Shown here: positions 673 through 60,536 of the stretch, one piece after another
Layout: every line of letters starts with the position of its first letter
Position numbering within the stretch: the stretch's first letter is position 1
NCBI GenBank assembly: GCA_021234155.1
Contig: JAJEKV010000282.1
Location: 1-64,000, forward strand
Length of the DNA: 64,000 bases
Source: Isoetes taiwanensis
Lineage: Eukaryota; Streptophyta; Lycopodiopsida; Isoetales; Isoetaceae
Direction of reading: 5' to 3'
The notes under the pieces: generated by a model
The model's input: the letters and a program-made list of their open reading frames with translations, nothing else
What the model was told of the DNA's origin: nothing
Databases searched by the model: none
Translations under genes and position numbers: made by a program

Positions 673-806
673 TGTTAGCATGTTAATTAATGGTGCAAAT
701 GTATCATGTACAATATTGTACATAGTATAAAAGTAAAAAGTCTATGTAGGAGTTGACGTGTGGCATTTAGGATGGATAAACTTGATAGAATCCAGTGAGC
801 TCATGA
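673..806 (+). repeat. Partial 3' LTR of the copia element at 1-672
   Basis: The segment starts with TGTTAGCATG immediately after the polypurine tract. It matches, in inverse orientation, 34,200-34,335, including the TGGTGCAAA..TATCATGTA core and GTCTATGTAGGAGTTGAC. It is cut at about 807 by a LINE 3' end. Confidence 0.7.
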
Positions 807-968
807 AGAAAGAAAGAAAGAAAGAAAGAAAGATTTATTAACGTCTACGTAAGACCCAAAGGGTCTATGAGACCATAACATAAACAGAATTCAAGACCTT
901 CAGGAGGAAAACCCTCCTGTTATCTAAAGTATGGAAACAAAAATATTAAGTTTAACAATTGAAAATCA
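807..968 (-). mobile_element. LINE 3' end with (GAAA)n tail
   Basis: Read on the minus strand, this matches the 3' end of the LINE at 46,860-47,015: a GGAGGGTTTTCCTCC hairpin, then GGTCTCATAGACCC-TTT-GGGTCT, then ACGTTAATAAATC and a TTTC microsatellite (seen on plus as GAAA repeats at 808-832). It is a strongly 5'-truncated copy inserted in an LTR. Confidence 0.8.
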
Positions 969-971
969 AAG

Positions 972-1148
972 ATGCAAGAAAGATGCAAGAAAGATGCAAG
1001 ATACAAGCGCAAGCTAACCAATGCTATGGAGTGAATCAACTAGTATGAGGCGTGACTATGGCTAATATATGGATTGCCATGTCAGCAACAAGTGATGACT
1101 CAGCATGCACAGTCATCAACACACGTGGAGTATGATAATACTCTATCA
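972..1148 (-). repeat. Truncated 3' LTR of element B (copia-like)
   Basis: On the minus strand this begins TGATAGAG right after an AGGGGGGA tract. It shares the blocks GTTGCTGACATGG and AGCCATAGTCACGC with the LTR at 4,784-4,990, so the two are diverged members of one LTR family. Its far end is lost against the LINE tail at 807-968. Confidence 0.65.
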
Positions 1149-1210
1149 TCCCCCCTGATGACGACGTGCATGGCTGAAAACCAAAGAAGAAAAAACTACA
1201 TCCCCCCTGA
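1149..1210 (-). other. Paired polypurine tracts of element B
   Basis: Two AGGGGGGAT tracts, at 1,149-1,157 and 1,201-1,209 as read on minus, lie 52 bp apart just before the LTR. The related element A has the same paired layout at 3,448 and 3,549. The LTR-adjacent copy is expected to prime plus-strand synthesis. Confidence 0.55.
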
Positions 1211-2325
1211 GATCAAGCAGTGCTCATAAGATAGAGCAAACTCAACCAGAATATAAGCCATGGCTGCCAAAACATAGTCTTGAACCACATCTTTCTGCCT
1301 CTGTACCATTCTCGTTTGGTTGAAACATTCAAGCAAATTACTGAAATAAGACTTCAAAGAGAAGTCCATATAAGCCATATCCACACCAGGTAGCTTTTGT
1401 AATCCAGTGTCCTTGTTGATAAACTTAAAAAACTGTTGTGCTAACCTTTCTTTACGAGAAAAGAGCAGATGAGTCTCCGTACTAACAAGAGTATGCAATC
1501 TTGTTCCCTTACATTCTCTTGAGATAACCAGACTTTGATATTCACATAAGTCATCGAAATCATGCTGAATTTGAGTATTCTAAGAAGTACCTGATTTGCA
1601 GAATGCAAGCATGTAAAACTGACCTCTAGTAGTTGGCTGATCCCTTGAATATCAGTGCATGAAACATATCCCAAATATTCAGCCAAATTAGCATGATCCT
1701 TCACTTTCCCATCATGTGTGCAAAATTTAAATGAAATGTTTAAACACATATAAAGAGGTAGTTCTAGCTGTTGAGTACAAACCTGAGACATTATAGAAGC
1801 AAAATCATAAGTCTTCGCATCAAGATTCAGCCAAGGAAACTGGACAAGCAATTCTTCTTCCATATCACTGTCATGGGTAAGTGTTTCCTTCCTCAAATTA
1901 TATGTGTCATGAAGCCCTGCAAATTGATCTGCATCATGCATAAGAATCTGAACCAGGCCTGGTTGATTATTCTCACAAAACTGTGAAGGTACAAGTAGAT
2001 GTGACAGATCAAGCTTTAGGTTCCAAAAATCATCATACTTTCGTTGTAATATGCCCATGTCCTGTTCTGCCTTTGCTAGAATATCATTCCAAAGCTCCTT
2101 CATAACACAATAATCATTGTGGATAGTATCAAATTCACTGTCAAGACAAGGCAATTCTAACTGTTCAGGCATAAATACTTGAATGCTCTCTGAACCCAAT
2201 GAAAAATACTCCAAAGTCTGACACAAATTGTGATGTTCACCTTCACAAGATCGGAAGCCTGTAATAGAATAGTGCTTGTCAATATCTATTGGTAAATGAA
2301 GAGTATCTTGCTCACATAAAGTCAA
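1196..2325 (-). CDS. Unrecognised 294-aa ORF inside element B
   Basis: A long open frame (1,441-2,325, with an overlapping 100-aa frame at 1,196-1,498) lies between a gag-like frame and the element's polypurine tract, where pol would normally be. I see no protease DSG, integrase, YVDD or RNase H motif. The product is acidic and rich in Leu, Cys and His, with no clear membrane segment. It may be a non-canonical coding region of a non-autonomous LTR element, a captured host fragment, or gag-derived sequence that has diverged beyond recognition. No function is assigned. Confidence 0.4.
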
Positions 2326-2328
2326 GCA

Positions 2329-2903
2329 TTAACTCGTGTTACTAGCGTTACTAGCAGCATTAAGGAGATATGATTGGTCCAATACTTGAGCATTTTTATA
2401 TATATGTAGCCTCTTCCAAAATATTTCGAGACAATTAGAATCAGAGGAAGAATCGTGGATCTCAGGAACAGAAATAGAAAGCATAAAATTAGATATCTCA
2501 GAACTAACAGTCAAAGCAGTCAAAGCATGTTCATGCTTTTTCCCTTTTCTTTTTCTTTGTCTTTTTGCTTCTTCTTCCTCTGTAACTTACACTCAATAAG
2601 ATCCCAGAGTTCTTTAGAACTTGTAAATTGACCTGATACCCAGGGATGGACATGCAAATCTATTGTTGCTCGAATCAAAGCCAATGCAAGTCTGTCTCTC
2701 AACTCATACCCTTGATGATTTAGCTCTGATTTAGTAACCTGACCATTAACAATTTCCCAAATACCTTGTATGGACAGAAACTGTCTCATAGAATCCTTCC
2801 ATTGAGGATAATTGTCATGAGCTAAGGACCTAAATCCAAAATTAACTCCTTCAAATGACAACATCTCTAACATAGTACACAATACTGGCTTAAATCTTCT
2901 CAA
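2329..2903 (-). CDS. Copia gag-like N-terminal region (UBN2/DUF4219 type)
   Basis: The frame 2,520-2,903 carries the typical start of plant copia Gag: a F-G-V-N-F/Y-xx-W-like opening (here DNYPQWKDSM), then GIWEIVNG about 15 residues later, and a helical segment with SSKELWDLIE. It ends in a lysine-rich stretch, and a short in-phase continuation is found at 2,329-2,523. No zinc knuckle is visible. It probably forms the capsid of element B. Most of Gag and all of pol are missing downstream, so the element looks non-autonomous. Confidence 0.6.
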
Positions 2904-3447
2904 ACTCTATGAAAATCGTTCAAATATGAGAAAAAACTGACAAAATCAAACCCCAGAGACAACTGCCTTGCTCCTCAAGAAACCACAAATGAAAACCAGA
3001 GTCATTCGACCAGATTCCTCTGTGCTTTTTTTGCTGTAAATAGCCCTAAATAACTCATGGAACATCCCGGATGATCATTCCAAAATAGATCCTGCATGCA
3101 GACTTTTACCTTTTCCAAAACAAGAAAAAATACTCCACTAAGAAAAATATATGCCACGCAAAGAATAGACGTCCAGATCCTAGCTCAAACTTGAGATCCG
3201 GCTCCCTTATGCCGTAACTCCAAATCTGGCACAAATCCGATCCCAAATAACCTAGGCTTGCTTCGGATCTACCAATCCGGCTCCAAACATCACACAACTC
3301 CGATTGAAAGGTCAAATCTGTCAGATGCTCACCCAACTACAGATCTGACAATATCCACTCCGGCAAACGCCAGATCCCAGCAAAGTCTTGCTTACACAAA
3401 TTCGTCAAACTGTGAAGACTCCCAATCTAGTCCTGTGTTTGCTAACA
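2904..3447 (-). other. Leader region of element B / junction with element A
   Basis: This is non-coding sequence 5' of the gag-like frame. It abuts an AGGGGGGA|TGTTAGCAAA motif (PPT plus LTR start) at 3,438-3,455. After TGTTAGCAAA the sequence no longer matches the LTR at 4,784-4,990, so element A's 3' LTR is replaced by B's leader. No primer binding site is visible for B. Confidence 0.45.
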
Positions 3448-3557
3448 TCCCCCCTGATGACGAGCAGGACTGAACTGAAAAAACAGAAACAGAAAAACAA
3501 ACAAAAAGCCTCCTGAGAGAGAAGCTTTAAGAAAAAAAAACACTATGATCCCCCCTG
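3448..3557 (-). other. Paired polypurine tracts of element A
   Basis: AGGGGGGAT tracts at 3,448-3,455 and 3,549-3,556 (minus) follow the RNase H end of element A. The tract next to TGTTAGC is preceded by a GTCATC block also seen next to the LTR-proximal tract of element B. Confidence 0.55.
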
Positions 3558-3592
3558 AGAATAAGCATGGGGCAGAACATGCAAGAGCTGTT

Positions 3593-4667
3593 TCATCTGA
3601 CGGAATTGATGTCCTCCAAGAGGTTTTGTGAACCCACAGCAACTTGATGTTTGGTAAAGCAGTAAGACAGCGAGAGATATCCATTTTGGAGCTGCTCTTT
3701 GACAAACCACAGTTTGATATCCATATGCTTGATAAGCAGATGCATCTTGTAGTCTTTGGCGTGAACAATGGCTCCACAGTTATCACAGTAAATGGTCGCA
3801 GGTTTTTGAGGACAGCCCAAATCTTCATATAAGTTAACCAACCAGCGCATCTCTTGTACTGTTGTAACCAAGGCCTTGAGTTCAGCCTCAGTAGTACTGA
3901 TGATGCTGTTTGTCTTTTGCTTTTTAGATCCCCAACTAATAGGATTGCCTCCAAGAAAGGAAACGAATCCAGTAATGCATTTTCTTTTCTCAAACTCTGT
4001 AGATGCCATATCGGAATCTGAGAACAACATAAGAGTAGGATGATCAAGTTTGGTATATAGGACTCCTTCACTTTGAGTACCTTTGAGGTAATGGAAAACT
4101 CGTTTAGCTGCTTTTAAATGCGGTACTTTAGGATGATGCATAAACCTTAAGGACTGCAACAGCATATACCAAATTTGGCCTAGTGTTGGTAAGATAAAGT
4201 AAAGCCCCAATTAGCTGTCTGTAAAGAGTCGCATCAACATCCGGATGGTTGGAGTCTAGAGTTAGAGTGCAACCTCCCTCAAACGGAGTGGATGATGTTT
4301 TGCAATCTGCCATATGAAACTTCTCAAGAAGTTCAGTGGTGTACTTCCGCTGAGTGAGATGAATGCTTTGAGCACCTTGCCAAATTTCCATTCCCAAACA
4401 ATAATGCATTATGCCCAAATCTGTTACCTCAAAGTTTTCTGTAAGTGCCTTCTCAGTATGAGAAATAATAGAATCCGCATCCCCTGTCATAATCGTGTCA
4501 TCAACATAGAGAAGGAGCACACTAACTTGAGAATCAGTGGACATGAAATAAAGGCTTGTGTCTGCTCTAGATCTCTGGTAACCAAGATGCAGGAGAAATG
4601 CATTGATTTTCTGATTCGAAAGCTGAGGAGCTTGTCTCAGGCCCAACGATTTCAACCAACGATTCAA
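3593..4667 (-). pseudogene. Copia reverse transcriptase-RNase H, internally deleted element A
   Basis: The frame 4,128-4,667 encodes the second half of copia RT: LRQAP, then INAFLLHLGY, YVDD near 4,505, YCLGME and the RQLIGALLYL block. It then shifts into 3,593-4,210, which encodes RNase H (YLKGT, SDSDMA, SSTTEAELKAL-like block, DNCGAI). The LTR-PBS-leader at 4,668-4,990 joins directly to mid-RT, so gag, protease, integrase and the front of RT were deleted. It is a non-functional derivative related to element B by LTR similarity. Confidence 0.85.
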
Positions 4668-4770
4668 ATTCGAATTTAAACAATTCCAATTCCTCCTGAT
4701 CAGACCCGAAAAAAAAACTCGTTCTGATCTCAGCTGCTAAGATTCGGCACTCAATTTCCTCCTCGCATTG

Positions 4771-4783
4771 AGCTCTGATACCA
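4771..4783 (-). other. Primer binding site, initiator-Met tRNA type
   Basis: TGGTATCAGAGCT (minus) begins directly after the LTR end ...ATCTTCA. This is the usual plant copia site complementary to the 3' end of initiator Met tRNA. Confidence 0.85.
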
Positions 4784-4990
4784 TGAAGATATGACTGAAT
4801 ATGAATAGGAAGAAGACTACTATGCAAGGATAGAATGAGATAGACGATCTAGCTAGTCTAGTGAGTGAACTCTGAATGAACAACAATAAAGCGTGACTAT
4901 GGCTTTATAGGAGAGCCATGTCAGCAACACCTAGGTGGCATGCCTAGTCATCTACGAATAGTGACACATGACATGTGTCATTTGCTAACA
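4784..4990 (-). repeat. 5' LTR of copia element A (207 bp)
   Basis: It begins TGTTAGCAAA and ends ATCTTCA, giving TG...CA termini, followed at once by the primer binding site. It interrupts element C, whose integrase frame stops at 4,991. Confidence 0.8.
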
Positions 4991-6649
4991 TTTCCCAAGA
5001 ACACAAGGCTCACATACCTACTTGTCATCATGGATTGGGACAGCGTACGCAAACTTCTATAACTGATATGGCCATGCCTTTTATGCCAAATCTCTGACTG
5101 GCTGCTGCTACCTGCTACTATATTGGCCAGATTTTGGGCAGAGACAATCTCCATAAAATATAAGTTGCCTTCTCTTCTCGCATGGGCAATCACCTTCATA
5201 TTTCTTATTATCTCTATAAATTCTTCATTCGGCTGAAAAATTATTGTTTCATCTTCATCAAAAAAAAACTTTGAAACCCTTACGAGTTATGCAAGTAACA
5301 GAAAGTAGATTACTCTTTAGATCGGGTACAAATTTCACATTTTGAAATGTCACACTAGCGTCTCCTTCTCCTTTCACTCTTACATATCCATACCCTTCGA
5401 TTGCTAATCTGTTAAAAGGATTGTATCTCCATTATACTTTGTGAGCTTTGAGAAAAAGGATTCATCACTATTACATGAGTCTAGCACCCACTATCCAAAC
5501 AAGCAACACATCTATCACACTTGTATCTTACATGATCAACCTCATGGACAAACTTGCAAAATCTTGTGCATTCGTAGAGATTTGCTCTCCTGAGCTTGAT
5601 GGCAACCCTTCTTCAAGGTATTCACCTTCAATAGACTCTTTTTTAGAGGGCAATCATTTACCACACGACCAACTTCATCACAACAATGGCATTTGATATT
5701 TTTGTTGGAGTAAGAACGCCAACATTCCCCTCTTCCTTCAATTGTATTCCTCTACTTGTACTGTACGGCCTCTTTCATGGCCTCTTCCTCGTTTAGGTTC
5801 TCCTCGTTGATGCTGATGAGATTGAGAATCAGTTTTCGCAGCTTGACTCCTACTCCCCCTACTTCTTGATTGGCTGAAATTTCTTCTTGATTGGCTGAAA
5901 TTAACCTGCTCCATTTGTTCCAAGATTTGATTAACCTGCTCCATTTGTTCCAAGATTTGTGATCTCAAAACCTTTTGCTATAAGACTGCTGCAAGCTCTT
6001 TGAAGCTAGGCTAATTCTCCCGTGCTTGAAAAGCATCAAGAAAATGCTCATATTCAGGTGCTCCCTGATGCCCTCTTCAACTTCAACTCCGTTAGAAGCC
6101 AATTGTGCAGCAATTTCTGTGATCTTGGCAATGAAGTCACTCACATCTTTACATTATCTTTAACTTTAGACTGTTAAGCTGATTTCTTAACAGCTGCTTC
6201 CTTGTGTGATTTTTTGTCTCATAGATTTGTTGAAATCTGCGCCAAGCTTCACTAGCACTTTTCACTCCAAGTGCGTGCCTTTGCATGGAATCATCCATTG
6301 CAAGTTTGATGAGCAGCAGGCCGTTTTGTTCAACTTCTCCCATTTGTCATCTTCATTTTGGTCTTCACCAGCTACTACGTCCCAAACTCCAGCAAGATCA
6401 AGTGCCAAAGTCATCTTCTCCTTCCAAATGGAGTAGTTCTTCGAGCAAGAACATCTCGCTCATGAACACCTTTTCCAGGCTGTCCATTTTAAACTCTCCA
6501 TAACAGAGGGATGCTTCTCTCTAGGCTCAAACACAAGTTACAGTTAAAATCTGCTCTGTTTTCCACAAGGCAGAAAAACCTTCTCAAAATACTTCCTCTA
6601 CTGCACAGAATGAAGCACCCAAGGATGGCAACACTGCTCTGATATCAAA
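4991..6649 (-). pseudogene. Copia element C, gag to pre-integrase, decayed relative of element E
   Basis: Minus-strand relics are collinear with element E of this window. A gag piece at 6,149-6,343 includes SASEAWRRFQQIYETKNH. A nucleocapsid basic/RG segment at 5,738-5,968 carries a tandemly doubled QILEQMEQVN unit. A GAG-pre-integrase piece at 4,978-5,199 includes SSSQSEIWHKRHGHISY. The connecting sequence has several stops and short deletions. The element runs into the LTR of element A at 4,990. It is the same family as E (9.1-17.6 kb) but older. Confidence 0.8.
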
Positions 6650-6912
6650 TGTTGAGTGGGGAAGGTGATCTGAACAGCAAAACACAATGGAGAAAGGAGG
6701 AAACGCAACCACCAACAAAGGAGGAGCAAGAAACTTGTGCATTAGATGGTACATATATGTGTGCCTCATATTGGGTGGCAAATAGAGAAAAAGGTAAAAG
6801 GGACCCACGGGCTAATACCAAATGTCCCATGGGGTACAACGTTAAGTTACACGTTAAGTTACACTTTACGACTTAACATGTCCAACATATATCACATTAT
6901 ACTATTCTAACA
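6650..6912 (-). repeat. 5' LTR of copia element C (263 bp) plus PBS at 6,634-6,649
   Basis: On the minus strand it begins TGTTAGAATAG and ends CCACTCAACA, followed by TTTGATATCAGAGC, a one-base variant of the Met-type primer site. It has the same length and layout as the E LTR at 9,087-9,349. Confidence 0.85.
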
Positions 6913-7321
6913 GGTAAAAGGTTCAAAATCATCATACTGGTTTAGCAGACACCAATATCAGTACTTGAAACACTTGTATCAGAAGCATTATGAGAAACAC
7001 CAATAGCAGGATTTGGAACATTCGTAATATTAGTAGCAGATGAAGAAGTTCTAATCTCGAAGCTAGAGCCACGCTAGAAGGCTCTATATTTTTTTGAAGC
7101 AGCTAAGATGGCAATTGGAACATCTACCAAGGAGGCTTTTGATTTAAGTTTGATCAAATGTTTCCAGGGACTGAAGATTTGATGTCTTGGAGGCTATCAG
7201 AAATTCCTCAACATGGCAATTGCGTCCACTGTTTGTTCGTGATATGTAAAAAATATTAAAGAAATTCGCCTAGCCAAGCTATGTAGACGGTAGAAGATAT
7301 AAGGTGGTAGGCGAGAAATAC
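6913..7321 (-). other. Sequence after exon 45; no sound exon recognised
   Basis: The C-terminal part of an ASCC3-type protein (end of the second Sec63 module, roughly 180 residues) should follow exon 45 on the minus strand. Short open pieces occur near 7,085-7,210 and 6,950-7,070, but none reproduces the expected WWL..GD-type end and stops intervene. The remaining exons may be eroded, displaced beyond the window by the TE block at 1-6,912, or too divergent to see. Confidence 0.3.
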
Positions 7322-49117
<41,796 letters not shown>

Positions 49118-49378
49118 TCTGCAGAGATCTCGTTGAGAGTGGCCTACGGCCGAGTGGTTTTATAGTTTGTGTCGTGAAGATTTATGTGATGGCTTCCTAT
49201 CGGAAAACGATCGGAAAAGTGATTTCGTGTCAATGGTATAAAAAAAAATTCCGGATGGCAATGTTTTTTTTTTTGCGTTTTTCCGTTTTTCCTTGTCGTG
49301 TGGGACCGGGCGAGGGGAGAATGGGCACCTCGGTGTTGTAGGAGGAGTCATGTATGATGGAGGAAACCGCGACCGGGA
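49118..49378. other. Presumed 5' flank / leader of the helicase gene
   Basis: This is non-coding sequence upstream of the tentative start codon. I see no convincing TATA box at a useful distance. Homopolymer runs (A8 at 49,242, T10 at 49,265) are present. Confidence 0.3.
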
Positions 49379-49470
49379 GGGGTTTCCTGAATAAACCCCC
49401 GGGCGGTCGCCTCGCGAAGTGGCGGTAGCCGCTGAAGCAAGACCGCTGTGGGGTTTATTTCAGAAACCCC
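49379..49470. repeat. Inverted repeat of two 21-bp hairpin units
   Basis: GGGGTTTCCTGAATAAACCCC (49,379-49,399, given here by its arms GGGGTTT/AAACCCC) and its near reverse complement at 49,450-49,470 flank a GC-rich spacer. Each unit can also fold on itself. It lies about 260-350 bp upstream of the tentative start codon. Confidence 0.7.
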
Positions 49471-49689
49471 GAGCCGCCATGCGGTTACGCCTAACGAATG
49501 TCCACAAGGACTAAATTTTGCTAAAATTTTGGTTCTATTCTCTTCCCATGAAGCCGATGGAGTGGTGCAGTAAAGGAGCAGCGGAATGAGCTTTGCAAGC
49601 TTGCTTGCTTGTTACGTGATTCGGTGGTTTGCATTAGATTCTGTTTTGCATCGATTCGGCGGGTTTGGGCGCTTTGACATGATTCTAAG

Positions 49690-50000
49690 AGATCAAGATG
49701 GCTTAAAACTATTGTGGCAAAGCTATGGCATAGGAAGCCTGCTTGCCGCGGAAAGAAACTAGTATGGCGGAGCTATGGCATCTTGAAAACACAATAAATC
49801 CGAGGTTTAAACACAACCGACCCTCCATAGCCGACTTCCATAGCCGAGCTCCATAGCCATCCATAGCGACCTCCATAGCCGAGCTTTTGCAAAGCGGAAC
49901 CTCCATAGCCGACCGCCATAGCCGTGAAAGCAAATTCAACCGAAATCTGAAAAACCTCTCAAATCGAAAACCTTCGAGGTTTTTGGCGGAGCTCGGGCGG
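49690..50000. repeat. Imperfect tandem CCATAGCC(GA) repeat field
   Basis: At least nine copies of CCATAGC or its complement GCTATGG occur in this stretch, densest at 49,805-49,935, with spacers of 2-20 bp. The same word recurs at 62,215-62,465. Confidence 0.75.
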
Positions 50001-50999
50001 CGCTTTAAGCTCCAGAGCAAGTTGTTTATCGCTTTGAACAAAAGCATAAAACTGTAAATTTCGGCCTTTTGTGGACGCTATTTAACCCAAAACAACTAAC
50101 ATGTGTTCCCCGCCATAAAGCAACCATCAAAACACACACTACCTCCAAACAAGACCTAAAGAGGGAGACACCGCTATGCGAGGTTCGAACTTGCTCCGCC
50201 CCATCGCTTTGGCCTTCAATGGGATCCCATCACGTACATTTTTATTTCCCTCAATATCGTTCTCGGCCAAGATCTTAAAAAGTGGCTGTTAGGCCCTTCA
50301 AATTCCGGGCTTGATGCTTGAGATTTCCATTTAGAAGATTAGAGTAACTTGAGGTGGTTCCACCAAAAAATATGTGCAATGGGCAAATTGCATGTTGTGA
50401 TTTTCTGGTTTAAAATCTTAGGGGTTGGAAAAAATTACTTAGAATATATAGCACAATATAATATGCCTTAGAATCTAGATTAGAATTTACCGTGGTTAAA
50501 TAAAAGTAGACAATTAAAAGCAAAGGAATTACTTTATATATATATCCGCAAATGTCCATGTAGTATTGCTACATATTCAAGTTTCCTTTGATTTTCTTCA
50601 AAACTAGGTGATGTAGGGCAATCTAAGAAGTAACATTTATAGCCTGATTATACCGGCCTACATGAAGGTTAAATTTATTTTGAGCCATTCCATAGGATTT
50701 TTAGAAAATCTTGGCTCGATACCAATTAATACAAACCGCCTTTTCTACCCGCAAAACTAGTAGTCACAGTTCATCCAAATATCTTTAAAACCTGTGAACA
50801 AAAAACTTTCTTCAAGAAATTCACCACCCAACGGGCTCAAATTTGTGAACATTGCAAATGATCTATGTGGTTTTTTCTCAAAACCGAGAATTTTGTTTTA
50901 AAATTTTTTTCTTGAGGGTACCCTCCCGTGATATCATATCATATGCTTATGCTTTGATTGTGTTTCATCTCTCGCCGCTTTTCAAGACAGCCTTCATCA
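50001..50999. other. No recognised feature
   Basis: AT-rich sequence (especially 50,280-50,950) without a supported gene, RNA or TE signature. Confidence 0.4.
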
Positions 51000-51990
51000 A
51001 TGGTTGATGGTTTTGCAAAACATGACTCTCAGATACAATGGATCTCTCAACCGCCATGAACTTTCGCATTAAGTCACTTCCTGATAGTCCTCATGGCTGC
51101 AATTCTCCTATTTGCACTAGTAAGTAAGAGAACTTGGAGTAGAAATGGTGTACCGATTCATGCTCCCCTTGCTTGAAGTAATCCCATTGTCTTTTAAGAT
51201 CAGGATAATAATTTGCATGCAAGTTGTGCGATTCAAATGCTTTCCTAAAATCTGTCCATGTCTTTATCTAGGGGCAATAATTTCTTCCGGCCCTGCCACC
51301 ATATTCTAGCTACATCACCAAGTATTTATCCGTAGCTTGTAATTTTTGCTCCTCCGTAGCTTTGACTCTTAGAGTAGAAATGGTGTACCGATTCATGCTC
51401 CCCTTGCTTGAAGTAATGCCATTGTCTTTTAAGATCAGGATAATAATTTGCATGCAAGTTGTGCGATTCAAATGCTTTCCTAAAATCTATCCATGTCTTT
51501 ATCTAGGGCAATAATTTCTTCCGTCCTTGCCACCATATTCTAGCTACATCGGGCCAAGTATTTATCCGTAGCTTGTAATTTTGCTCCTCCGTAGCTTTGA
51601 CTCTTTCAAAGAAACTTTTCCACCGCCAAAAATCTAAAATCAAGGTGATGATGGCATTCCCTCTATTTTCTCCAACTATTTAATTCTTCCAATGTTGGAA
51701 TTTGATGCTGCAATAGGATAATCAGGTGGAGTGACTGGTGACAAATTACTGTGCAAAGGAGGTCGCCTGGATATATTAAATTCACCACCCAATTGTGCTC
51801 GATGGCGCATACACCGCAAAGGATCTCTCGCGGGCTCTTTCCAAAATCGAGAATTTTGTTGTTCAAATCAACAACTTCTCCGGGATCAATCATGGGATCA
51901 TTTAGACTTGGTTACCGTGATGTCGATGCCGCAGCAGCATTTGTGACCCTTTATCACGCTTTTCAGCCATTACTCTTCGCATGCATTTAA
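51000..51990 (-). pseudogene. Gypsy-like gag remnant with internal tandem duplication
   Basis: On minus, 51,605-51,130 reads ARIWWQGRKKLL, then TWIDFRKAFESHNLHANYYP and LKRQWHYFKQGEHESVHHFY. This is the pattern of Ty3/gypsy Gag (W-xx-F...F...Y...L...L.QG..SV..Y). It continues towards 51,000 with a KFMAVERSIVSESHV segment. The 235-bp unit occurs twice (51,138-51,372 and 51,373-51,607), so part of the domain is duplicated. The upstream part (51,663-51,893) is open but less clear. No pol follows. Confidence 0.6.
51138..51607. repeat. Tandem duplication, 235-bp unit
   Basis: Both units start AGTAGAAATGGTGTACCG and end with CTCCGTAGCTTTGACTCTT. They differ by a handful of substitutions and 1-3-bp indels. 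Confidence 0.9.
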
Positions 51991-53064
51991 TTACGCAATG
52001 TTCCATCCCAATTCGGAAACTAGATTCGAAGCGGGCGCCTAAACTAAATAAAAATCGCCTCAATCGCAGCTCTGATTATGGAGATATATCCAATTGAAGT
52101 TTAGCTCTCTCCACGACTTTAACCTTTTTTTAGCAGGCAATTGCCTTTTATATTAAAAAAGCTCCTTCCTTTAATTCCACCACACATCCAGATTTCAAAA
52201 TGATAACTAACACCTTTGCCTCTCGTGGTTCATCTCTCGCAAATCCTCTAAGCCGCCCCGAAGCTTGAAGCCAGAACGATTCCTTCCTCGCCTCAAGACC
52301 GATCGCCCTCGATCATCCGCCTTTGCGTGTCTTAACAATTCCTTCCCATCTCAAGATTGATCGTGATTCGATCATCCGCCCTTCTTGTCAAAAACAACCT
52401 AAGGGTACTTTTATTTATTTCATTTTCATTTGTTGTGAATGTTATTCTAAACTATGGGTGTTTGGAAGTTTAGGGAATAGTCCATATGCGAAAGAGAGAT
52501 CTACAAATTTGAAGATATCTAGTTTTTATGAATACTCAGCTTTGCAAAACTCATCTTATTGTAGAAGCAAAGAAGGCGATTCTTTAAGAGCAAAAACCTA
52601 TTGTATGGGTAATCCACAAGATGCATGATTCTCGTTGATGGAGTCTGTATAAAACTGCTTAGGGCGCCAGACACTATGGCAGCAAGGAATTGGTCATTTA
52701 TCGACTTTGAGCATGTATTTTTTACGCCTAAATGAATGTGCACTCAATTTAGGCCACCTAACAATATAAAACAAAGTTAGGGTAGCCTGACGGATCCGCC
52801 ATGAATGGGTAAATGTATGATCCAAACTTCAAACATGAAACCCCACCTAAACAATGTCAAGACGAAGTTCGTTTCTCACACAGCCTCGAAACGTTGATGA
52901 GCACGGCCTCACAGTGGATACTTTGGCAAAGGTCGGCCGCTCATAGCTTAAATTAAACAGTGAAAACTTTATCGATCGAAGTGGCTAGCCTACGTATTAA
53001 TGTGTGGAATCCCTTTGAAGCACTAATTGCAAGCTTGAGTTAACAAAAGCAAACCGATCCAATT
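51991..53064. other. No recognised feature
   Basis: No coding frame with a recognisable motif and no repeat structure is obvious in this stretch. Confidence 0.35.
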
Positions 53065-53500
53065 AATTTAAAAGATGAATTACGATCGGGCTTTAATCGA
53101 GGAAAGAGACCGCCGTAAACTAATTATGAGATCGCTAATTGTAGGCCTTCCTAAGCAATGAGATGAGAACATAAAATATGTAGTTCAAGAATTTGCATAC
53201 AACCATCCAAATTAGAAGAAGATTGTGGATTATTGATGCATGGATAGCATGTAAAAAAAAGTTGAAGATAAAATTCGCCATGTTCTTATCAAATGTCGAG
53301 ATGAGACTTCACGAACAGACATTATGAAGCAAGGGCCTCTTCTTAAAGGAACGTCTTACAGAGTGTGTGAAGATTTGACTTGACAGCAACTGCAAACCCA
53401 TCCAGATTCCATTTGTCAAGTCCGAGAAGCATGTGCTGCAGGAAAATGAGTTGTGTATAGGAAGGGGCAAGTCATTATCCATGATAGGCATGAATAAGAA
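53065..53500 (+). pseudogene. LINE family B ORF1
   Basis: Readable blocks are EERDRRKLIMRSLIVGLPK, RHVLIKCRDETSRTDIMKQG, LLKGTSYRVCEDLT and REACAAGK with VVYRKGQVIIHDRHE at the end. This is the order of L1-type ORF1 proteins with an RNA-binding middle and a C-terminal domain. Stops occur at about 53,162 and 53,385. A nucleic-acid chaperone role is inferred from the family. Confidence 0.65.
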
Positions 53501-53559
53501 TTGTCGGGACCTGATCACAAGGCTGCCCCAGTCTCTATTGCATATTAGAATGTTAAAAG

Positions 53560-56040
53560 CCCAAAAGGCATGTATACTAGTCTTGATTTGTTAGAGACTA
53601 AACAATTAGACATTCTCTTTCTTCTCGAAACTTGGGAACATCAATTTGCAAGGCTTCCTGCACTGTAGAAGTATGAGATGCACTCTATTTGGCACCATAA
53701 ACCTTCTCGTGGACGTCCCTGTGGAGGTATTGCTTGCATTTTCGATTTTAGACTAAGTAATAAAATAGATGTAATTTTTAGGGACGAAGAAAATAAACAG
53801 TTTATGGCTATAAAGATTTTGCTGCACTTTTGCTTCTAGAAAAGGACTTGGCCTGCTATACGCCTCCTTCAGTATATCATCAAAATGATGCCTCTATTGC
53901 TAAACTTGGCCTGAAAATTGCTGAATGGAAACACCTCTAGAATATACTAATAGTGGGTGACTTCAATGGCTGGACAAGCAACCTTCAAGGCAGACAGAAT
54001 TTTTGTTGACATTGATCCAGGATAACTAATGATAGAACCGTGGGGATCTATCATTTGCAAGAAAAAGTCAAGATAGACTAATGTTGCATGACATCGTGTT
54101 CTTAACCTCTCCGCTTCTTCTTTGGATTTAACGGATATTCAATGGGATTGGTGCATTTGCTTCGTATAAATTTACTTTTAGAAATGAGACCAGCTGGAGC
54201 GCTTTTACATACTCAACTTTGGACTATCTTATTGGTGACCCGCGATCTATATGCTATTCTTGAAGATATACCAATTGGTGATTTCATACCGTAAAGAGAC
54301 CATGCACCATTACTATTCAAGCCGGTTGCCAATGTAATCGCCTCGCGGAAGCAAGTAAGAACGCGCCTCAAATACAAGAAATCTAAAGTTGATGCTTTTC
54401 AGAAGAGATCACCAAGAATTTGCATCATGTTAAGAGCTTGTGAAATATACATTTGAAAGCAAGGGCATTGAATTGCTTATTGATTGAATGTCCCAAGCGG
54501 GTTTATGGCTAACCGATCACCATTGCACTCATCCATAAAATGCATAGTATGGTAAACCGTGCTAATAATCCATAAAAGTTGAAGGCATACAAAAGAATGG
54601 TCAAAGCTAAGAAACAAGAATGGTACGTAATGCATCAAATAGAGCCGACAAATCAAGCTCCATCACTCTCCAAAATGTTTTTGAGAACCTTGGCCCCGCC
54701 AAAGGAAACAACTTGCTCTAACAGATTTGCAAACTTGGAAAGCCTATACATTGCACCTTTACTTTAAGGGTGAGGATAAATTGTGTCTACCTATTGAGGT
54801 CGCTGCCTACTTTTGTGTGAATGTTGCATTGATGAAAAAGCTATTAATAGTTTAGCCCCCGGTAAAGCTCGGGACATGGTTGTTCTAGTAGCGTAATAAC
54901 CGAAAAGATGGCGGTTCAATTTGGCGTGATTTATTGCGTAGCTCTTTAATCAAGCTTATAACAGATGGTTTTCCGAGGCATGGATCCCAAGCTTGATCCA
55001 TCCCATTCACAAATATGGAGACGCATTGATGCAGCCTGTGTAACTATCACATATTAATGGTCAGCCCGATCCTTGTCAAATTTTTGGCAAAGTTTTTATT
55101 CTAAATTGACCGCTTTGGGCAGAGACACATAAAGTAGGAGTTCATGGACAAAGGCAGGATTCGACATGGACACTCTACATTGATCACCCGATTACACTTC
55201 AACCATGATTGAGACAACCAAATTGCAAAATAAGCCCTTCTTATGTCTGTTTTTATCGATTTTGCTAAAGCATTTGACACCATACCCCATCAAAAGTTAT
55301 TGGATCGCCTCGACTAACTTGGAATACCCGGTGATTGGATTCTAGCAATTGGAAGACTTTATGAGACAAGAAGAGGTAGAATTGCCACCCGTAAGGCTTA
55401 TCCGATGTAATCATTAGTGATATAGGTGTAAAGTGTGGCTGCCCGCCGCCTACACTATTCAAAGCTATACATTGATCACCGGAAGTGTTCCTTCAATCCA
55501 CTGTGTTGCTCATTTCCTCGCACATACCGTGAGATGGTAATATTACTACTTTATGCAAATGATTTGCTTTTTGTTTGCTCATTCTCCAAATGGAATTGCA
55601 GCAACAACTTGATGCATTAGCTGATTTTGCTTGCAATTCAACTTGAGCAAAACTAGTGTCTTGTGCTTTGGGAAGCAAACAAACAATATTATACTACTGT
55701 GGTAAGCCGATTGAGACCGCAGACTCCTATAATTACCTTGGCCATGAGGTCCTGGCTTGGACATAAAGTATGGACTAAAGGTATGGATCACCTGATATCG
55801 CCTTCCTTAAAAGCTATTTATGCATTGACAAATGTATATAAACATGCACACATCACCTTTTGGCCTTTGTAAAAAAGCTCTTTTGATGCATTGGTGCTAC
55901 CAAAGGGCTCAGATGTGAGTGAGATATGGGGGCCTTCTATCTCAGAATCCAAATGCAATGAACTCGAATCATTGCGTAAGACATGGATGCACCTCGACTT
56001 TGAAGGTCAAGTGCCGTACTCATATGAAATTATATTGTTT
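53560..56040 (+). pseudogene. LINE family B ORF2 (endonuclease-RT)
   Basis: The endonuclease shows LDLLETKQLDILFLLETWEHQ (53,580), CGGIACIFDFR (53,735), YTPPSVYHQNDAS (53,860) and ILIVGDFNGW (53,945). RT shows FIDFAKAFDTIPHQKLLDRL (55,250-55,310), RLYETRRGRIATR and LLLYANDLLF (55,545), a YADD box with Asp to Asn. Frames change repeatedly and stops are frequent, so it is inactive. A GC-rich segment follows from 56,090. Confidence 0.7.
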
Positions 56041-56700
56041 GACAAAGGATCTTTCCCTTCCTTCCTTTCCTTTTCCCTCCCGGCGCCTGCTCAAGGGGCG
56101 CCTGGGCGCCACTCGAGGCGCCGCCGAGGCCCGCCCGAAAGCGGATGCAATGATGGATGGCGCGGAGCAGCGGGGTTTGGAAGGATGGCTTCGTGTGCTC
56201 GAGTGGGTGTCCGGCCAAGGCATACTGGCCGGGCGCCTTTGGCGCAGTGGCTGGTGGATGGGTGAGGAGGCACCTCCGATGGGCGATTTCCCCGAGCCGT
56301 TTTTTTCGGCCGCTTTCCTCATGGTGTCCGGGATTGGCGCATAGGGGCGCCTCGCTTTTCCAAAGACCGGGGGCCAGAAGAGGTTACGGTTCGAGTTGCT
56401 TGGTGAAGCTTTGCCTTAAGGCCGGAGGTATGAAGGTATGCTTGTTGCTTGTGCAACAAAGATGGATTTTTTGATCGGTGAGCAGCCATAGTCATCCCGG
56501 CAACGACTTTTTCCCGTGTGGTTTTTAATCCCGGTCATGATGGTTGTGTTCTAGCTCACGCTTGTGCTTTTGGTTTAAGGGCTTCGGCCCATGTTCTTGT
56601 TTGGACTTCGGTCCATGACTTCGGTCCCTTATGTACTTGGTCCCATAACCCGATTGGGTTCCGTGGACATTAAAAATTTTTCCTTCCTTCCTTCCTTCCT
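56041..56700 (+). repeat. LINE family B 3' region: GC-rich stretch, hairpin and (TTCC)n tail
   Basis: 56,085-56,380 is strikingly GC-rich (GGCGCC repeated) compared with its surroundings. From 56,486 (AGTCATCCCGGCAACG) to 56,700 it matches 60,325-60,535. The end reads CCCATAACCC-GATT-GGGTTCCGTGGAC, then ATTAAAAATTTTTCC and four TTCC units. Confidence 0.7.
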
Positions 56701-57945
56701 CTAGAAATACATGCTATGTACAGGACAACAAAGTATTTGCAGAGAAAGAATGAGATGGATGATAGCACCTTGGTGAAAAATGCTTTAGATGCTTCAAAGC
56801 AACTTGCGCAGAAGGAAAAAAGCGCTTTTGGTACTGAGAACTATGTAATTGGTTTGGTAGATTCAGCCTGCCTATTAATGGTCAATATGATAGGTTAAAA
56901 AGAGAGCCTTCTTGGCTTACTGTGATTTTACCAACAAGGCAAAGGTTGGCTATTATATCAGGGATTTTAACCCTACCAGAGAACACATGATACAACTATA
57001 TTTGTGCCATTATTATGGGCCATTGCTTGCATGGACTCTAGGTTAGAATCAGATGCATTAGAAAGATATTTTTGAAGCATGATTATCGATGATCCTAACC
57101 AGTCGTTGCTATAATCTTGTCACCAAGTTTGCTATGATTAAGACCTTAACTATCCATAGGGGTTTCTATTCCTATCCGATTGTCATGCCTTGACCATATT
57201 TTGTCAAAGTAAAGCACCCATGCCAGTCCACTAAGACTAATGTCCGAGACGATACCTCTGAACTACCATAGCCATATCAGTTCGAGCACCAACTCAATTT
57301 GTTTCACTTGAGCACCAACTCAATCCATTTCAAGTTCTTAGGCCTAGGGTAAATTATGACTTATAAATAGCATCAACTATTCATTTCAATCACAATTACT
57401 ATGGCTAAGAATTAAGATTAAGGTACTAGAAGGATTGAATTGATCCACAAAGATGGAATAAAATAGACAAGGTTCAAAACTTTATAAATTGCTAAACTCA
57501 AAGGACGGATAAGGTTTAAGAATGGAATGAAATTAAGTTTTTCATTGAAGCATCAACTGCTCATAATTTTAGATGACAATCTAAAAGTATCAATATCATC
57601 CTTTACATTCAAAATCTTATGGCATCAGCCCATAATACTTTTAGATCTATTAATGGCAAAAATTGCCATCATAAGAATTGAACCGAATGGGTTTTTATCC
57701 GCTGGGAAGACCAATAGGTCTATGGAATCCAAACAAAAGAAAACAAATGTAAGTATTATTGTCCAAGGATAAAAGACTTCTACCCGGAAGGGTTTTGAGG
57801 GAAAAATCTTAGCAAAGAATAAGCATGCTAACAAAACTGCACCGCGGATACATATCAATGAAGTATTGGAGACACAATGAGTCCCGAAGATATGATCCTA
57901 GAATCCCCACCTCAATTTGTGTGCAACATCATATGGAGTCTGCTG
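56701..57945. other. No recognised feature
   Basis: A 60-codon plus frame (56,716-56,898) and an 81-codon plus frame (57,527-57,772) have no recognisable domain. The sequence is otherwise AT-rich and featureless to me. Confidence 0.35.
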
Positions 57946-59018
57946 GTTAGATGGGACCAACTCAAAGATAGCGCGCCTCGATAGGTTCAAATGTCGAAAG
58001 CGCTGGTATGGCACCACACCGACATAGCAACACCGATAGAGCATGTCTTCTCCGCTCCGAATCCATCCGCCTACCTCAATTTGGAGGAGGTGAGCACCTT
58101 TGTGAATGGAAGCAATGAGTCCAAGACTTCTTCATAGGTAAATGTGCTCGCAAGTATCATTGTAGATCCCGGCCAAGCGGGGGATTGATCTCGCTTTTGT
58201 ATTGTGTAGTTTTTACCTGCTCCAAAGCCTCATGGTATCCCAAAGCTTGTTCGAAAAAGCATGCCTTGAGGTATTGCTTCAAGTGATTGTGATCCTCCTC
58301 GGCTTGTATCCTTATGCACATGCACTTGCACATTTCATATATGAAAAGCCAATTAGTTTGCTTCTTCTTCTAACAAGATTTGAGGCACTGTAGATCCATG
58401 CCCACATTATAAGTGAGGTTTGAAAGGCAAGTTTTGCCCACATTGGACACCTTCCAAAAGTATTTGAGGTGACGCTCGAGCAATACCCCTCGTGAGAAGC
58501 AAAAATCGCCTCCCCGCAAAAGTATCGATAAGAAACTATCAACTTTACCCCAAATGCTTTGGCCAAAAAGACCTTCTGAACCCACTGAACCCACTCCAGA
58601 TCATTCTAAATGGCAAATGATATCACCGATCCCAAATGTCCATCCCACATAAAAGAACGAGCTTTACCAAGACCCTGAACAAGTGCGACTGATGGATTTA
58701 GTCGTAAAGCTTTGCTTTATAACTATTGTTCTGCATTGCCTTCCAGCCTGTCGTCACTTGTTGCTGGATAGAAGTGTTCCAAAGAATGGTAACAATAAAC
58801 TACATGCCTAGATACTTGTAGGTAGGCGCAACATTTATATTTTGACCTTGAGAAGTGGAGGGCGGTCTTGGCTCCTGTGAAGGCGAGATGAGGAGCCCCT
58901 TACTCTTAGTCAAATTCACACGTATTCCAGTGGTCGAACAAAAAGTATCTAGGGCATCCAAATGCTGTTGCATGTCAGTCGGGGTGTAAGTTAAGAGGTC
59001 CAAGAACGTCAATGCCAT
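57946..59018 (-). pseudogene. LINE ORF2 RT C-terminal fragment
   Basis: On minus, 59,018-58,800 reads MQQHLDALDTFCSTTGIRVN, LTKSKGLL and APTYKYLGM, the segment just after the YADD box of LINE RT. It continues with WKAMQNNSYKAKLYD, LVKLVLLCGMDIWD (58,650-58,690) and 58,594-58,370 (LERHLKYFWKVSNVGKTCLS). The frame is kept only in pieces. The family differs from L2 in sequence. Confidence 0.7.
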
Positions 59019-60320
59019 AAACCCGCACTTAAATAGTGTTTATGTTCAGAACGCTTGTAGAACCTACCGAAATCTCTTACAGCTAGAAATCACACAAGAA
59101 ATACCCTTCTTTGAATCTTCTCCCCCTCTCCAACTCACCCTGCTTTGAATCACATCGAAGATACTCCATTTGAATCACACACTAAAAATATCCTACTTTG
59201 AATCCTCTTACCCTGCTTTAACAGATTGAACGCAAATCTAAACTACCTTCCAAATGTATAGATTTTGATGCTGACTTCACCTTTGAAGGAAGAGCAACCC
59301 AATGGGATCCTAAATTGCATTCACACTCTTACATAGTACTTTAAAAAGAATCAAACCTCAAGTGAAGCTTCAAAGTGGAAAAGTTTTCTAGAATGCTAAT
59401 CTAGATCAACTAAAAAGATCCAAGCAAAAATCACTAAGCTTTAAGAGTTCGGTCCACAGGTAGCCATGGCCAATCCATGCCAAGGAGAAAAAGAAAGGCA
59501 AACTTGTTCCCCTGGGCAAGAACACATGTTTTGAATGCCTAATCTGCGAATTCTGCGACCTTTTTATCCAGCTAAGCTAGGGCTCGCAAGGATCCGGCAC
59601 AAGCCATAGCTGAGAGTTGAATTGGGATGTGCCCAATACAAGATCCACCATGCCATTCTTTGCGCATCAAACAAAAAGAACGGGATGGATAATTCCCGCC
59701 CCTAAAACCCGCTTTTTCTAGCTTAGATATTTTTCAATGATTGGCAAAAAAAAACCCACTCCTAAAAAAATTATTTTTGATTAAAACTTTTTGTTTCCAA
59801 CCAAAATTTCGTAAAAAGTATTTGCAAACATAACGGTTTAGGTTATGAGAAACGAATTTGGCCCCTTCACGGCCTTGGAAAAGGTATTCTAAATTGACAA
59901 TAATGCACATATAGATTCCAATAATACTAAATACATGTCAGAATGGTTGAGGCAATACAATAGAGGAGACAGAAAGCACCATGATCAAAGATCAATAAGT
60001 AGATGCTATATATATGAAACATGGTTCGGTTCCAATAAGTAGATGCAATGTGCCAACATAATCTGTGAGTAAGACATATGTATGTACAATTTACATTGAG
60101 GAAATAAAGCAAAGAATAATACATCTTATAGGATTGAACGCATTGTAGCCATCTTGGCTTATGTCGACCATCGCAAATTTTTTAAATATCCTCACCCATT
60201 ATATTAAGTTGAAGTTGATAATTCTACAACAAATCAATGCAGCTTGTAAATAACCAACTATCCCTCTTGCCAATGCGGGGATTCATCCTATTAGCGTTAA
60301 TAAATCAGTGAGAGCCTTGC
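59019..60320. other. No recognised feature
   Basis: No motif-bearing frame. Several A-rich stretches lie near 59,745-59,825. Confidence 0.35.
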
Positions 60321-60324
60321 CCTA

Positions 60325-60536
60325 ATAGTCATCCCGGCAACGGTTTTTCCCTGTGTGGTTTTAATCCGGGTCATGATGGTTGTGTTCTAGCCGACGTTGT
60401 GCTTTTGGTTTAAGGGCTTCGCCCATGTTCTTGTTTGGACTTCTGGCCCAGACTTGTCCCTTATGTACTTGGTCCCATAACCCACTTTGGGTTCCGTGGA
60501 CGTTAAAATTTTTTCCTTCCTTCCTTCCTTCCTAAA
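60325..60536 (+). mobile_element. LINE family B 3' end, truncated copy
   Basis: It matches 56,486-56,700: TCATCCCGGCAACGG start, GGTCATGATGGTTGTGTTCT, GGTTTAAGGGCTTCG, then AACCC-ACTTT-GGGTT, a GGACGTTAAAATTTTTTCC stretch and four TTCC units. Confidence 0.85.

What the first reader, a model, noticed from the sequence alone, without database searches (positions are those of the whole stretch)
807..60536. LINEs of different families share a 3'-terminal hairpin with compensatory changes before a microsatellite tail
Near the tail, GGTCTCATAGACCC...GGGTCT recurs with a changing loop and stem. The forms are GACCC-TTT-GGGTC (about 845-860, minus), GACCC-TTC-GGGTC (46,965), GACCC-AA-GGGTC (37,790 and 41,748), GGCCC-TAT-GGGTC with one G-T pair (26,740, minus), AACCC-GATT-GGGTT (56,650) and AACCC-ACTTT-GGGTT (60,481). 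The G-C to A-T pair swap keeps the stem while sequence changes. A second hairpin (GGAGG/CCTCC or CTAGGAG/CTCCTAG) lies upstream in some. Each end is followed by TTTC or TTCC repeats. Stem-loop recognition of the RNA 3' end by LINE RT is known for some stringent-type LINEs, so this may be the recognition element of this host's LINEs.
Basis: partly seen in the sequence, partly recalled or inferred. Interest (0 to 1): 0.7.

Follow-up and report, generated by a model that had tools for sequence, protein, structure and literature searches.

The report
Shared two-stem hairpin ending LINE retrotransposons
Several distantly related jumping genes (LINEs) in this stretch of a eukaryotic genome end in the same small folded RNA shape just before a short repeat tail, which is probably the handle their copying enzyme grabs; handles of this kind are already known from other LINEs, so this is a good new example rather than a new phenomenon.

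Summary
In detail: all seven quoted hairpins are there. The quoted stem is the inner part of a two-tier hairpin; an outer stem, GUCY/RGAC, encloses it and can pair in all seven. A TTTC/TTCC tail starts 10-11 nt after the outer stem in five copies; one copy has an irregular tail, one none.

The copies come from different LINE families. A and B share 56% amino-acid identity, but their modules are 80-88% identical while the 60 nt upstream align no better than shuffles. A structure model of A+B recovers family C (E 2e-4 and 1e-3); a sequence-only model does not (E 0.2). Family D is missed. Covariation is thin: two pairs change on both sides, both in C, and 46 of 500 shuffles do as well. Unaided folding gives two stems in all seven, but the exact pairs in only four.

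Best reading: a 3' recognition element for target-primed reverse transcription, as in stringent-type LINEs. Function is inferred; the genome-wide test could not be run because the host genome is not held.

The parts
37307..37825 (+). Copy A1: LINE A 3' end (93% to 41257-41775); module 37782-37812 (outer 37783-37786/37809-37812, inner 37791-37795/37798-37802); no repeat tail
37826..41730 (+). LINE A body: end of ORF1, stop, endonuclease (Exo_endo_phos), broken reverse transcriptase, zinc-finger-like C terminus (the last two by eye and by match to B)
41684..41707 (+). Upstream hairpin of A2 (CTAGG..CCTAG, one bulge)
41731..41762 (+). Module A2: outer GTCT/GGAC (41732-41735 / 41759-41762), inner GACCC-AA-GGGTC (41740-41744 / 41747-41751)
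41774..41789 (+). TTTC tail of A2, 11 nt after the outer stem
45454..46956 (+). LINE B: C-terminal half of ORF2 with weak zf-RVT match (below cut-off), and 3' UTR
46913..46929 (+). Upstream hairpin of B1 (AGGAGG..CCTCCT)
46957..46988 (+). Module B1: outer GTCT/AGAC, inner GACCC-TTC-GGGTC
47000..47015 (+). TTCC/TTTC tail of B1, 11 nt after the outer stem
843..874 (-). Module B2: outer GTCT/AGAC, inner GACCC-TTT-GGGTC; 91% to B1 over 815-957, 86% over 815-980
806..833 (-). TTTC tail of B2 (7 units)
53444..55013 (+). LINE body lying before C1: ORF1 end, endonuclease, start of reverse transcriptase (three matched pieces to LINE A)
56639..56668 (+). Module C1: outer GTCC/GGAC, inner AACCC-GATT-GGGTT (two-sided changes)
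56680..56699 (+). TTCC tail of C1, 11 nt after the outer stem
60471..60501 (+). Module C2: outer GTCC/GGAC, inner AACCC-ACTTT-GGGTT; in a unit of about 210 nt (60325-60533) 90% identical to 56488-56700; no LINE protein match directly upstream
60513..60532 (+). TTCC tail of C2, 11 nt after the outer stem
26935..27209 (-). LINE D: C-terminal ORF2 remnant, 57% amino-acid identity to B (47/83)
26775..26792 (-). Upstream hairpin of D (CTAGGAG-AATA-CTCCTAG)
26726..26756 (-). Module D: outer GTTT/AGAC, inner GGCCC-TAT-GGGTC; irregular pyrimidine tail from about 2 nt on
47202..47225 (+). Degenerate copy E: 5' part of module kept, inner 3' arm absent, TTCC tail at about 47240
33829..33902 (+). Decayed copy F of the A 3' end (78%), with LINE protein remnant 33383-33547

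Best explanation
The last 45 or so bases before the tail are a conserved 3'-terminal RNA module of one group of APE-type LINEs. In the LINE RNA it folds as a two-tier hairpin: a 4-bp outer stem, an internal loop (3-4 nt and 4-7 nt), a 4-5 bp inner stem and a small loop, then in most copies 10-11 nt of AU-rich linker and a UUUC or UUCC repeat. The element's own ORF2 protein probably binds this module to select its RNA, sets the repeat tail at the nicked target and starts target-primed reverse transcription there, with slippage making the repeats (stringent-type recognition). Shown: the module, its pairing potential, its sharing among diverged families, its place, and its conservation above its flanks. 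Inferred: protein binding, priming and slippage.
For: Seven complete copies in the window. Folded alone, an inner and an outer stem appear in 7 of 7; the exact modelled pairs in 4 (B1, B2, C1, C2). Body versus module: A/B bodies 168/301 amino acids (56%) and 60% of bases; modules A-B 80-88% (35/44, 37/44, 38/43, 38/43), while in the 60 nt upstream A-B scores are 6-8 against a shuffled 95% point of 9. Nested pairing: 45 of 45 cells over 5 distinct rows, two pairs changed on both sides (U-A to C-G outer; G-C to A-U inner); the rival side-by-side pairing has 93% and no two-sided change. Held-out test: a structured model of A+B ranks C2 (25.4 bits, E 2.3e-4) and C1 (23.0 bits, E 1.1e-3) next after its own four; without structure they score 8.4 and 8.2 bits (E 0.21, 0.25; ranks 9 and 10). 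Tail begins 10-11 nt after the outer stem in 5 of 5 complete copies with a clean tail. Literature: 3' stem-loops bound by ORF2 and needed for retrotransposition in ZfL2 (PMC4176376, passages); a 3' hairpin with compensatory changes in a monocot L1 lineage (PMC3747384, passages).
Against: Covariation is thin: 46 of 500 shuffles reach the observed two-sided changes, and both lie on the C branch. With B as the arbitrary reference, random placement of the seven stem changes (all transitions) keeps every pair with probability 0.02 if only transitions occur, 0.001 at 67% transitions. Pair counts flatter the model: in A1 and A2 the innermost C-G would close a 2-nt loop and cannot form (2 of the 45 cells), the folded A modules use C6 rather than the U.G pair of the outer stem, and D's inner stem folds with a bulged U instead of the G.U pair. 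Module folds are only moderately stable (z -1.5 to -3.8; 0 to 18 of 200 shuffles as good). Folded with upstream sequence as well, C1 and C2 are no better than shuffles (52 and 87 of 200) and A2 loses the outer stem. D is not listed by the A+B model up to E 10, and C-D and C-E modules score 6-8, not above the shuffled 95% point of 8. No convincing target-site duplication was found for 8 copies. No binding or mobility data.
Confidence: 0.66

Rival explanations
1. The hairpin plus U-rich tail serves to form, end or protect the LINE transcript's 3' end (a processing, stability or termination signal), and is not read by the reverse transcriptase.
For: Position at the element's very end; both B copies carry AATAAA inside TTAATAAATC right after the outer stem. 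Hairpin followed by a U-rich tract is a known processing or termination layout (recalled).
Against: A, C and D copies lack AATAAA there; the ends carry tetranucleotide repeats, not poly(A); the 10-11 nt to the repeat suits a placement role. Not excluded.
Confidence: 0.15
2. The shared end spread between families by template switching or recombination (3'-end capture) and is recent; similarity needs no selection on structure.
For: A and B modules are much more alike than their bodies.
Against: Flanks on both sides differ by family (upstream hairpins and linkers), and C and D differ from A/B at stem positions in pair-keeping ways. Capture would itself suggest that the end is functional.
Confidence: 0.1
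3. The working fold is two hairpins side by side (GGUCU-CAU-AGACC and GUCU...AGAC), or a switch between this and the nested fold.
For: Both are possible in A and B; the first hairpin is the MFE of degenerate copy E.
Against: Two of five pairs of the first hairpin are broken in C and one of four of the second in D; no two-sided changes support it; mean pair probability of the first hairpin is 0.00-0.12 in the seven complete copies.
Confidence: 0.05
4. Ordinary decayed repeats whose hairpins are chance.
For: The shape alone is common: 337 matches in the window, tail association 19 against 13.2 expected.
Against: Sequence, shape and distance recur together in different families; the held-out model recovers C; 10 motif matches against 0.96 expected.
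Confidence: 0.04

Closest known systems
Monocot L1-clade LINEs and ZmSINE2/3 with a conserved 3' hairpin (Ohshima 2012, as described in PMC3747384; passages seen; the 2012 paper itself is not held)
   Same: Last ~45-50 nt conserved far above the rest of the element, hairpin with compensatory changes, shared by LINE families and possibly by a short non-coding partner.
   Different: There: poly(A) or poly(T) ends, conserved loop UCU and CGAG after the stem. Here: TTTC/TTCC tails, variable loop, (G/A)UUAA after the stem in A, B and C.
UnaL2 / ZfL2-1 / ZfL2-2 (L2 clade) 3' stem-loops (PMC4176376, passages)
   Same: Upper and lower stems, next to a short 3' repeat; in ZfL2 stems can be swapped if the loop is kept.
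   Different: There the loop sets specificity; here loops differ in length and sequence even between related families, while stems and linker are conserved.
General stringent-type stem-loop (PMC5135761, passages including the abstract): 8-10 bp stem, bulge 4-6 bp from the loop, loop of 5-7
   Same: Here 8-9 bp in all, interruption 4-5 bp from the loop.
   Different: Loop here is 3-5 nt.
Chlamydomonas SINEX-2_CR with (CTTT)n tail, partner RandI-2 (table in PMC3747384)
   Same: Pyrimidine tetranucleotide tail of the same composition as the TTTC tails.
   Different: No sequence comparison was possible; RandI membership of the present LINEs was not tested.

Membership tests
LINE (APE-type non-LTR retrotransposon) | Endonuclease of the Exo_endo_phos family before a reverse transcriptase | tested here: met
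   LINE A: PF03372 E 3.3e-08, above its cut-off. The RT half rests on less: 0 of 4 RT-region pieces of A and B gave a Pfam hit; RT is recognised by eye from motifs (recalled), and A, B and C match each other in part.
LINE (APE-type non-LTR retrotransposon) | Target-site duplications and 5' truncation | tested here: inconclusive
   B, D, A1 and F lack 5' parts; no convincing duplication for 8 copies.
Stringent-type LINE | Conserved 3' end, above the flanks, with a stem-loop | tested here: met
   clear for A, B and C, weak for D.
Stringent-type LINE | A SINE partner with the same 3' end | tested here: inconclusive
   C1/C2 unit of about 210 nt has the module; no LINE protein match directly before C2, no tRNA gene found in the window; SINE or truncated LINE stays open.
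Stringent-type LINE | 3' module needed for retrotransposition and bound by ORF2 protein | not testable with these tools
   Needs a bench assay.
L1 clade (plant) | RT phylogeny within L1, C-terminal zf-RVT | tested here: inconclusive
   zf-RVT in LINE B only at E 0.0061, 17.6 bits against a cut-off of 27.5; no reference RT set was on hand and no tree was made.

The most novel reading that the evidence does not exclude
The module also pairs over 3.8 kb with the ORF1/ORF2 junction of its own RNA: in LINE A 14 bases shortly after the ORF1 stop (37945-37958) are the exact complement of the 3' module's GGTCTCATAGACCC, so the recognition hairpin could be held open, or the RNA closed into a loop, while ORF2 is being translated, linking translation to template choice. 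Seen in one element only; the C body does not show it among its best windows and B lacks the region.
Probability: 0.06. Interest if true: 0.7.

Novelty: new member of a known kind. Interest (0 to 1): 0.45.

Why it matters
If borne out, it adds LINE families with pyrimidine tetranucleotide tails instead of poly(A) in which nearly half the protein residues compared have changed while one RNA handle is kept. That makes the question of how a LINE protein and its RNA handle change together, and whether short non-coding elements borrow the handle, directly testable by swapping modules between families A, B and C.

Tried and rejected
Host genome search: not held. Relatives elsewhere: 4 scans of viral contigs (two hairpin patterns, two LINE protein pieces) gave no relative; the protein scans matched 2 and 7 stretches by pattern, none confirmed. 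The single genome-contig scan gave one exact match, in a bacterial record, without TTAA or a repeat tail after it, taken as chance. Rfam: 0 families at gathering score. Clade assignment: 4 RT-region pieces gave no Pfam family, the two of them tried gave no NCBIfam family, and the endonuclease piece only a match far below cut-off and a chance PDB match. MAFFT on the raw modules slid inner arms out of register, so for pair counts and models I fixed the register by hand. Model R1 contains all seven copies and finds them by construction (lowest, D, 26.9 bits; next 11.6 bits, E 1.2), so I rest on R2. Side-by-side pairing: rejected on family C. Upstream hairpin: present in A, B, D and E with differing sequence; for the 75 nt before each module, in 200 mononucleotide shuffles each, folds as good occur 0 (D), 5 (B2), 10 (E), 11 (A2), 17 (B1), 25 (A1), 25 (C1), 39 (C2) and 189 (F) times, so I keep it as a side feature. 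Long-range pairing of module and junction: best of 773 windows in A (-36.6 kcal/mol; -26.8 best away from the junction), not among the eight best windows shown for C.
Full report
What was checked. Every coordinate in the finding was read. Seven ends carry the hairpin: A1 (37782), A2 (41731), B1 (46957), B2 (874, minus), C1 (56639), C2 (60471) and D (26756, minus). Two more are imperfect: E (47202), which lacks the inner 3' arm, and F (33857), a decayed copy of A. The motif GGTCTCATAGACC with up to two mismatches occurs 10 times against 0.96 expected; six of the 10 are A, B, E or F ends and four are not LINE ends.

Structure. Besides the quoted inner stem, a second stem can enclose it: the GUCY at the start (GUUU in D) pairs with RGAC after a 4-7 nt linker. 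Variants: the fourth outer pair is U-A (B, D), U.G (A) or C-G (C), the third C-G or U.G (D); the first inner pair is G-C (A, B, D) or A-U (C), the second A-U or G.U (D). On a hand-made alignment of the arms (5 distinct rows for 7 copies) 45 of 45 cells are standard pairs and two pairs have changes on both sides; 46 of 500 shuffles do as well, so this alone is weak. The side-by-side alternative has no two-sided change and is broken in C and D. Random placement of the observed changes (1 in A, 2 in D, 4 in C, relative to B, all transitions) keeps every pair with probability 0.02 if only transitions occur and 0.001 at 67% transitions.

Folding. Each module folded alone shows an outer and an inner stem in 7 of 7, z from -1.5 to -3.8. 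Details differ from the pair table: B1, B2, C1 and C2 show all modelled pairs; A1 and A2 show three of the four outer pairs, with C6 pairing in place of U5, and an inner stem without the innermost C-G, which a 2-nt loop cannot close; D has all outer pairs but its inner stem bulges one U. Folded with upstream sequence, A2 keeps only the inner stem of the module, while the other six complete copies keep both; z is -1.2 (A1), -1.6 (A2), -2.4 (B1), -2.3 (B2), -0.6 (C1), -0.2 (C2) and -2.2 (D).

Held-out test. A covariance model built from families A and B only, searched over the whole window with filters off, ranks C2 (25.4 bits, E 2.3e-4) and C1 (23.0 bits, E 1.1e-3) directly after its own four sequences. 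The same rows without structure give them 8.4 and 8.2 bits (E 0.21 and 0.25), ranks 9 and 10. Decayed copy F does better without structure (E 4e-4) than with it (E 0.11). Family D is not listed by the structured model up to E 10; the sequence-only model lists its first half at E 0.13. By the tools' own statement the E-values of the calibrated model are rough.

Families. LINE A (37826-41730) has an endonuclease domain (PF03372, E 3.3e-08) and a broken reverse transcriptase. B (45454-46956) matches it at 168/301 residues (56%) and D (26935-27209, minus) at 26/46 (57%); B-D 47/83 (57%). The LINE body at 53444-55013, before C1, matches A at 53/128 residues (41%); one of these four pieces (56154-56210) is oddly spaced, lies in a stretch without other LINE-like reading and is doubtful. 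No match at E 0.01 between that body and B, D or F. The C-terminal zinc-finger part is not seen between this body and C1, so that C1 is its 3' end is likely but unproven. C1 and C2 are 90% alike over 56488-56700 / 60325-60533, and no LINE protein match lies between C1 and C2, so C may be a SINE-like unit or a truncated LINE. A1 is a second copy of A's last 520 bases, directly before the A body.

Conservation is local. A-B modules share 35/44, 37/44, 38/43 and 38/43 aligned bases (80-88%). In the 60 bases just upstream A-B alignment scores are 6-8, against a median of 5 and a 95% point of 9 for shuffled sequence. Upstream scores above the shuffled 95% point do occur between families: A1-D, A1-E, A2-E and D-E in the nearest window, A1-D and D-E in the next, A1-B1 in the farthest, so D, E and A may share more than the module. 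Within the module C-D (8, 8) and C-E (6, 8) do not exceed the 95% point of 8, nor does A1-E (8). The distance from the outer stem to the first tail unit is 11, 11, 10, 11 and 11 nt in A2, B1, B2, C1 and C2; 2 in D; 14 in E; A1 has no tail. Of 10 stretches of three or more pure tetranucleotide units, 6 (A2, B1, B2, C1, C2, E) follow the module or its remnant and four (22916, 56056, 61874, 62383) do not, by reading the 75 bases before them.

Mechanism. The simplest account is 3'-end recognition by the element's own ORF2 protein before target-primed reverse transcription. In ZfL2-2 the ORF2 region between endonuclease and RT binds the 3' stem-loop, and a ZfL2-2 stem mutant and loop mutant could not retrotranspose (PMC4176376, passages). 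A group in a monocot L1 lineage keeps its last 45 nt at 0.144 divergence against 0.570 for the whole element, with a hairpin and compensatory changes, shared by maize and sorghum SINEs (PMC3747384, passages). The present elements show a like signature. What differs is the tail (TTTC/TTCC; in that review's table 224 of 233 flowering-plant L1 families end in poly(A), 9 in no repeat), the two-tier stem and the variable loop.

Limits. The host was not identified. A Ty1/copia element and probable helicase exons far apart would fit a plant with long introns, by inference only. With one window there are four family-level types of module. Six searches of the held paper library (listings, plus passages of three papers) showed no report of this module, but the library holds open-licence papers only, lacks the 2012 paper, and was searched by words, not sequence, so this is weak evidence on novelty.

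Noticed in passing
37935-37958 (+): In LINE A the ORF1 stop (TAG) is followed in frame by ORF2, and GGGTCTATGAGACC at 37945-37958 is the exact 14-nt complement of the 3' module; mononucleotide-shuffled bodies reach 12 at most in 300 shuffles.
   Followed up: partly
53444-53550 (+): The LINE body before C1 has an in-frame stop (TAA, 53495-53497) at the place matching LINE A's TAG (VYRxGxVIIxD..., then stop, then E-L); ORF2 seems to run on in the same frame and no ATG is seen before the endonuclease. Readthrough or reinitiation is possible; this copy has many other stops, so chance is not excluded.
   Followed up: partly
23171-23000 (-): Copy H: an A-like 3' UTR (68% over 23048-23171) ends in a quite different hairpin, CAGCTG-TATTTTG-CAGCTG between ATAAT and ATTAT, just before AATCTTTCC: possibly a family with another handle.
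   Followed up: partly
23866-24168 (-) and 42709-43011 (-): Likely exons of an ASCC3/SLH1-like or Brr2-like DExH RNA helicase gene on the minus strand (PDB matches, best E 1.1e-21 and 0.0019); LINE copies between them would lie in its long introns.
   Followed up: partly
10292-19733 (+): A Ty1/copia element with integrase and RVT_2 domains (14105-17260) lies after a shortened copy of itself: 10292-10716 equals 13746-14170 (99.8%) and 10715-13745 equals 16716-19733 (99.2%), which looks like a tandem duplication with an inner deletion in the first copy.
   Followed up: no
56579-56630 (+): C1 carries tandem UUCG-loop hairpins upstream of the module (GGGCTTCGGCCC, GGACTTCGGTCC, GACTTCGGTC); C2 has altered forms.
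   Followed up: no
51133-51605 and 25291-25474: Two-copy tandem repeats with periods of 235 and 92 nt (95% and 95% matches).
   Followed up: no
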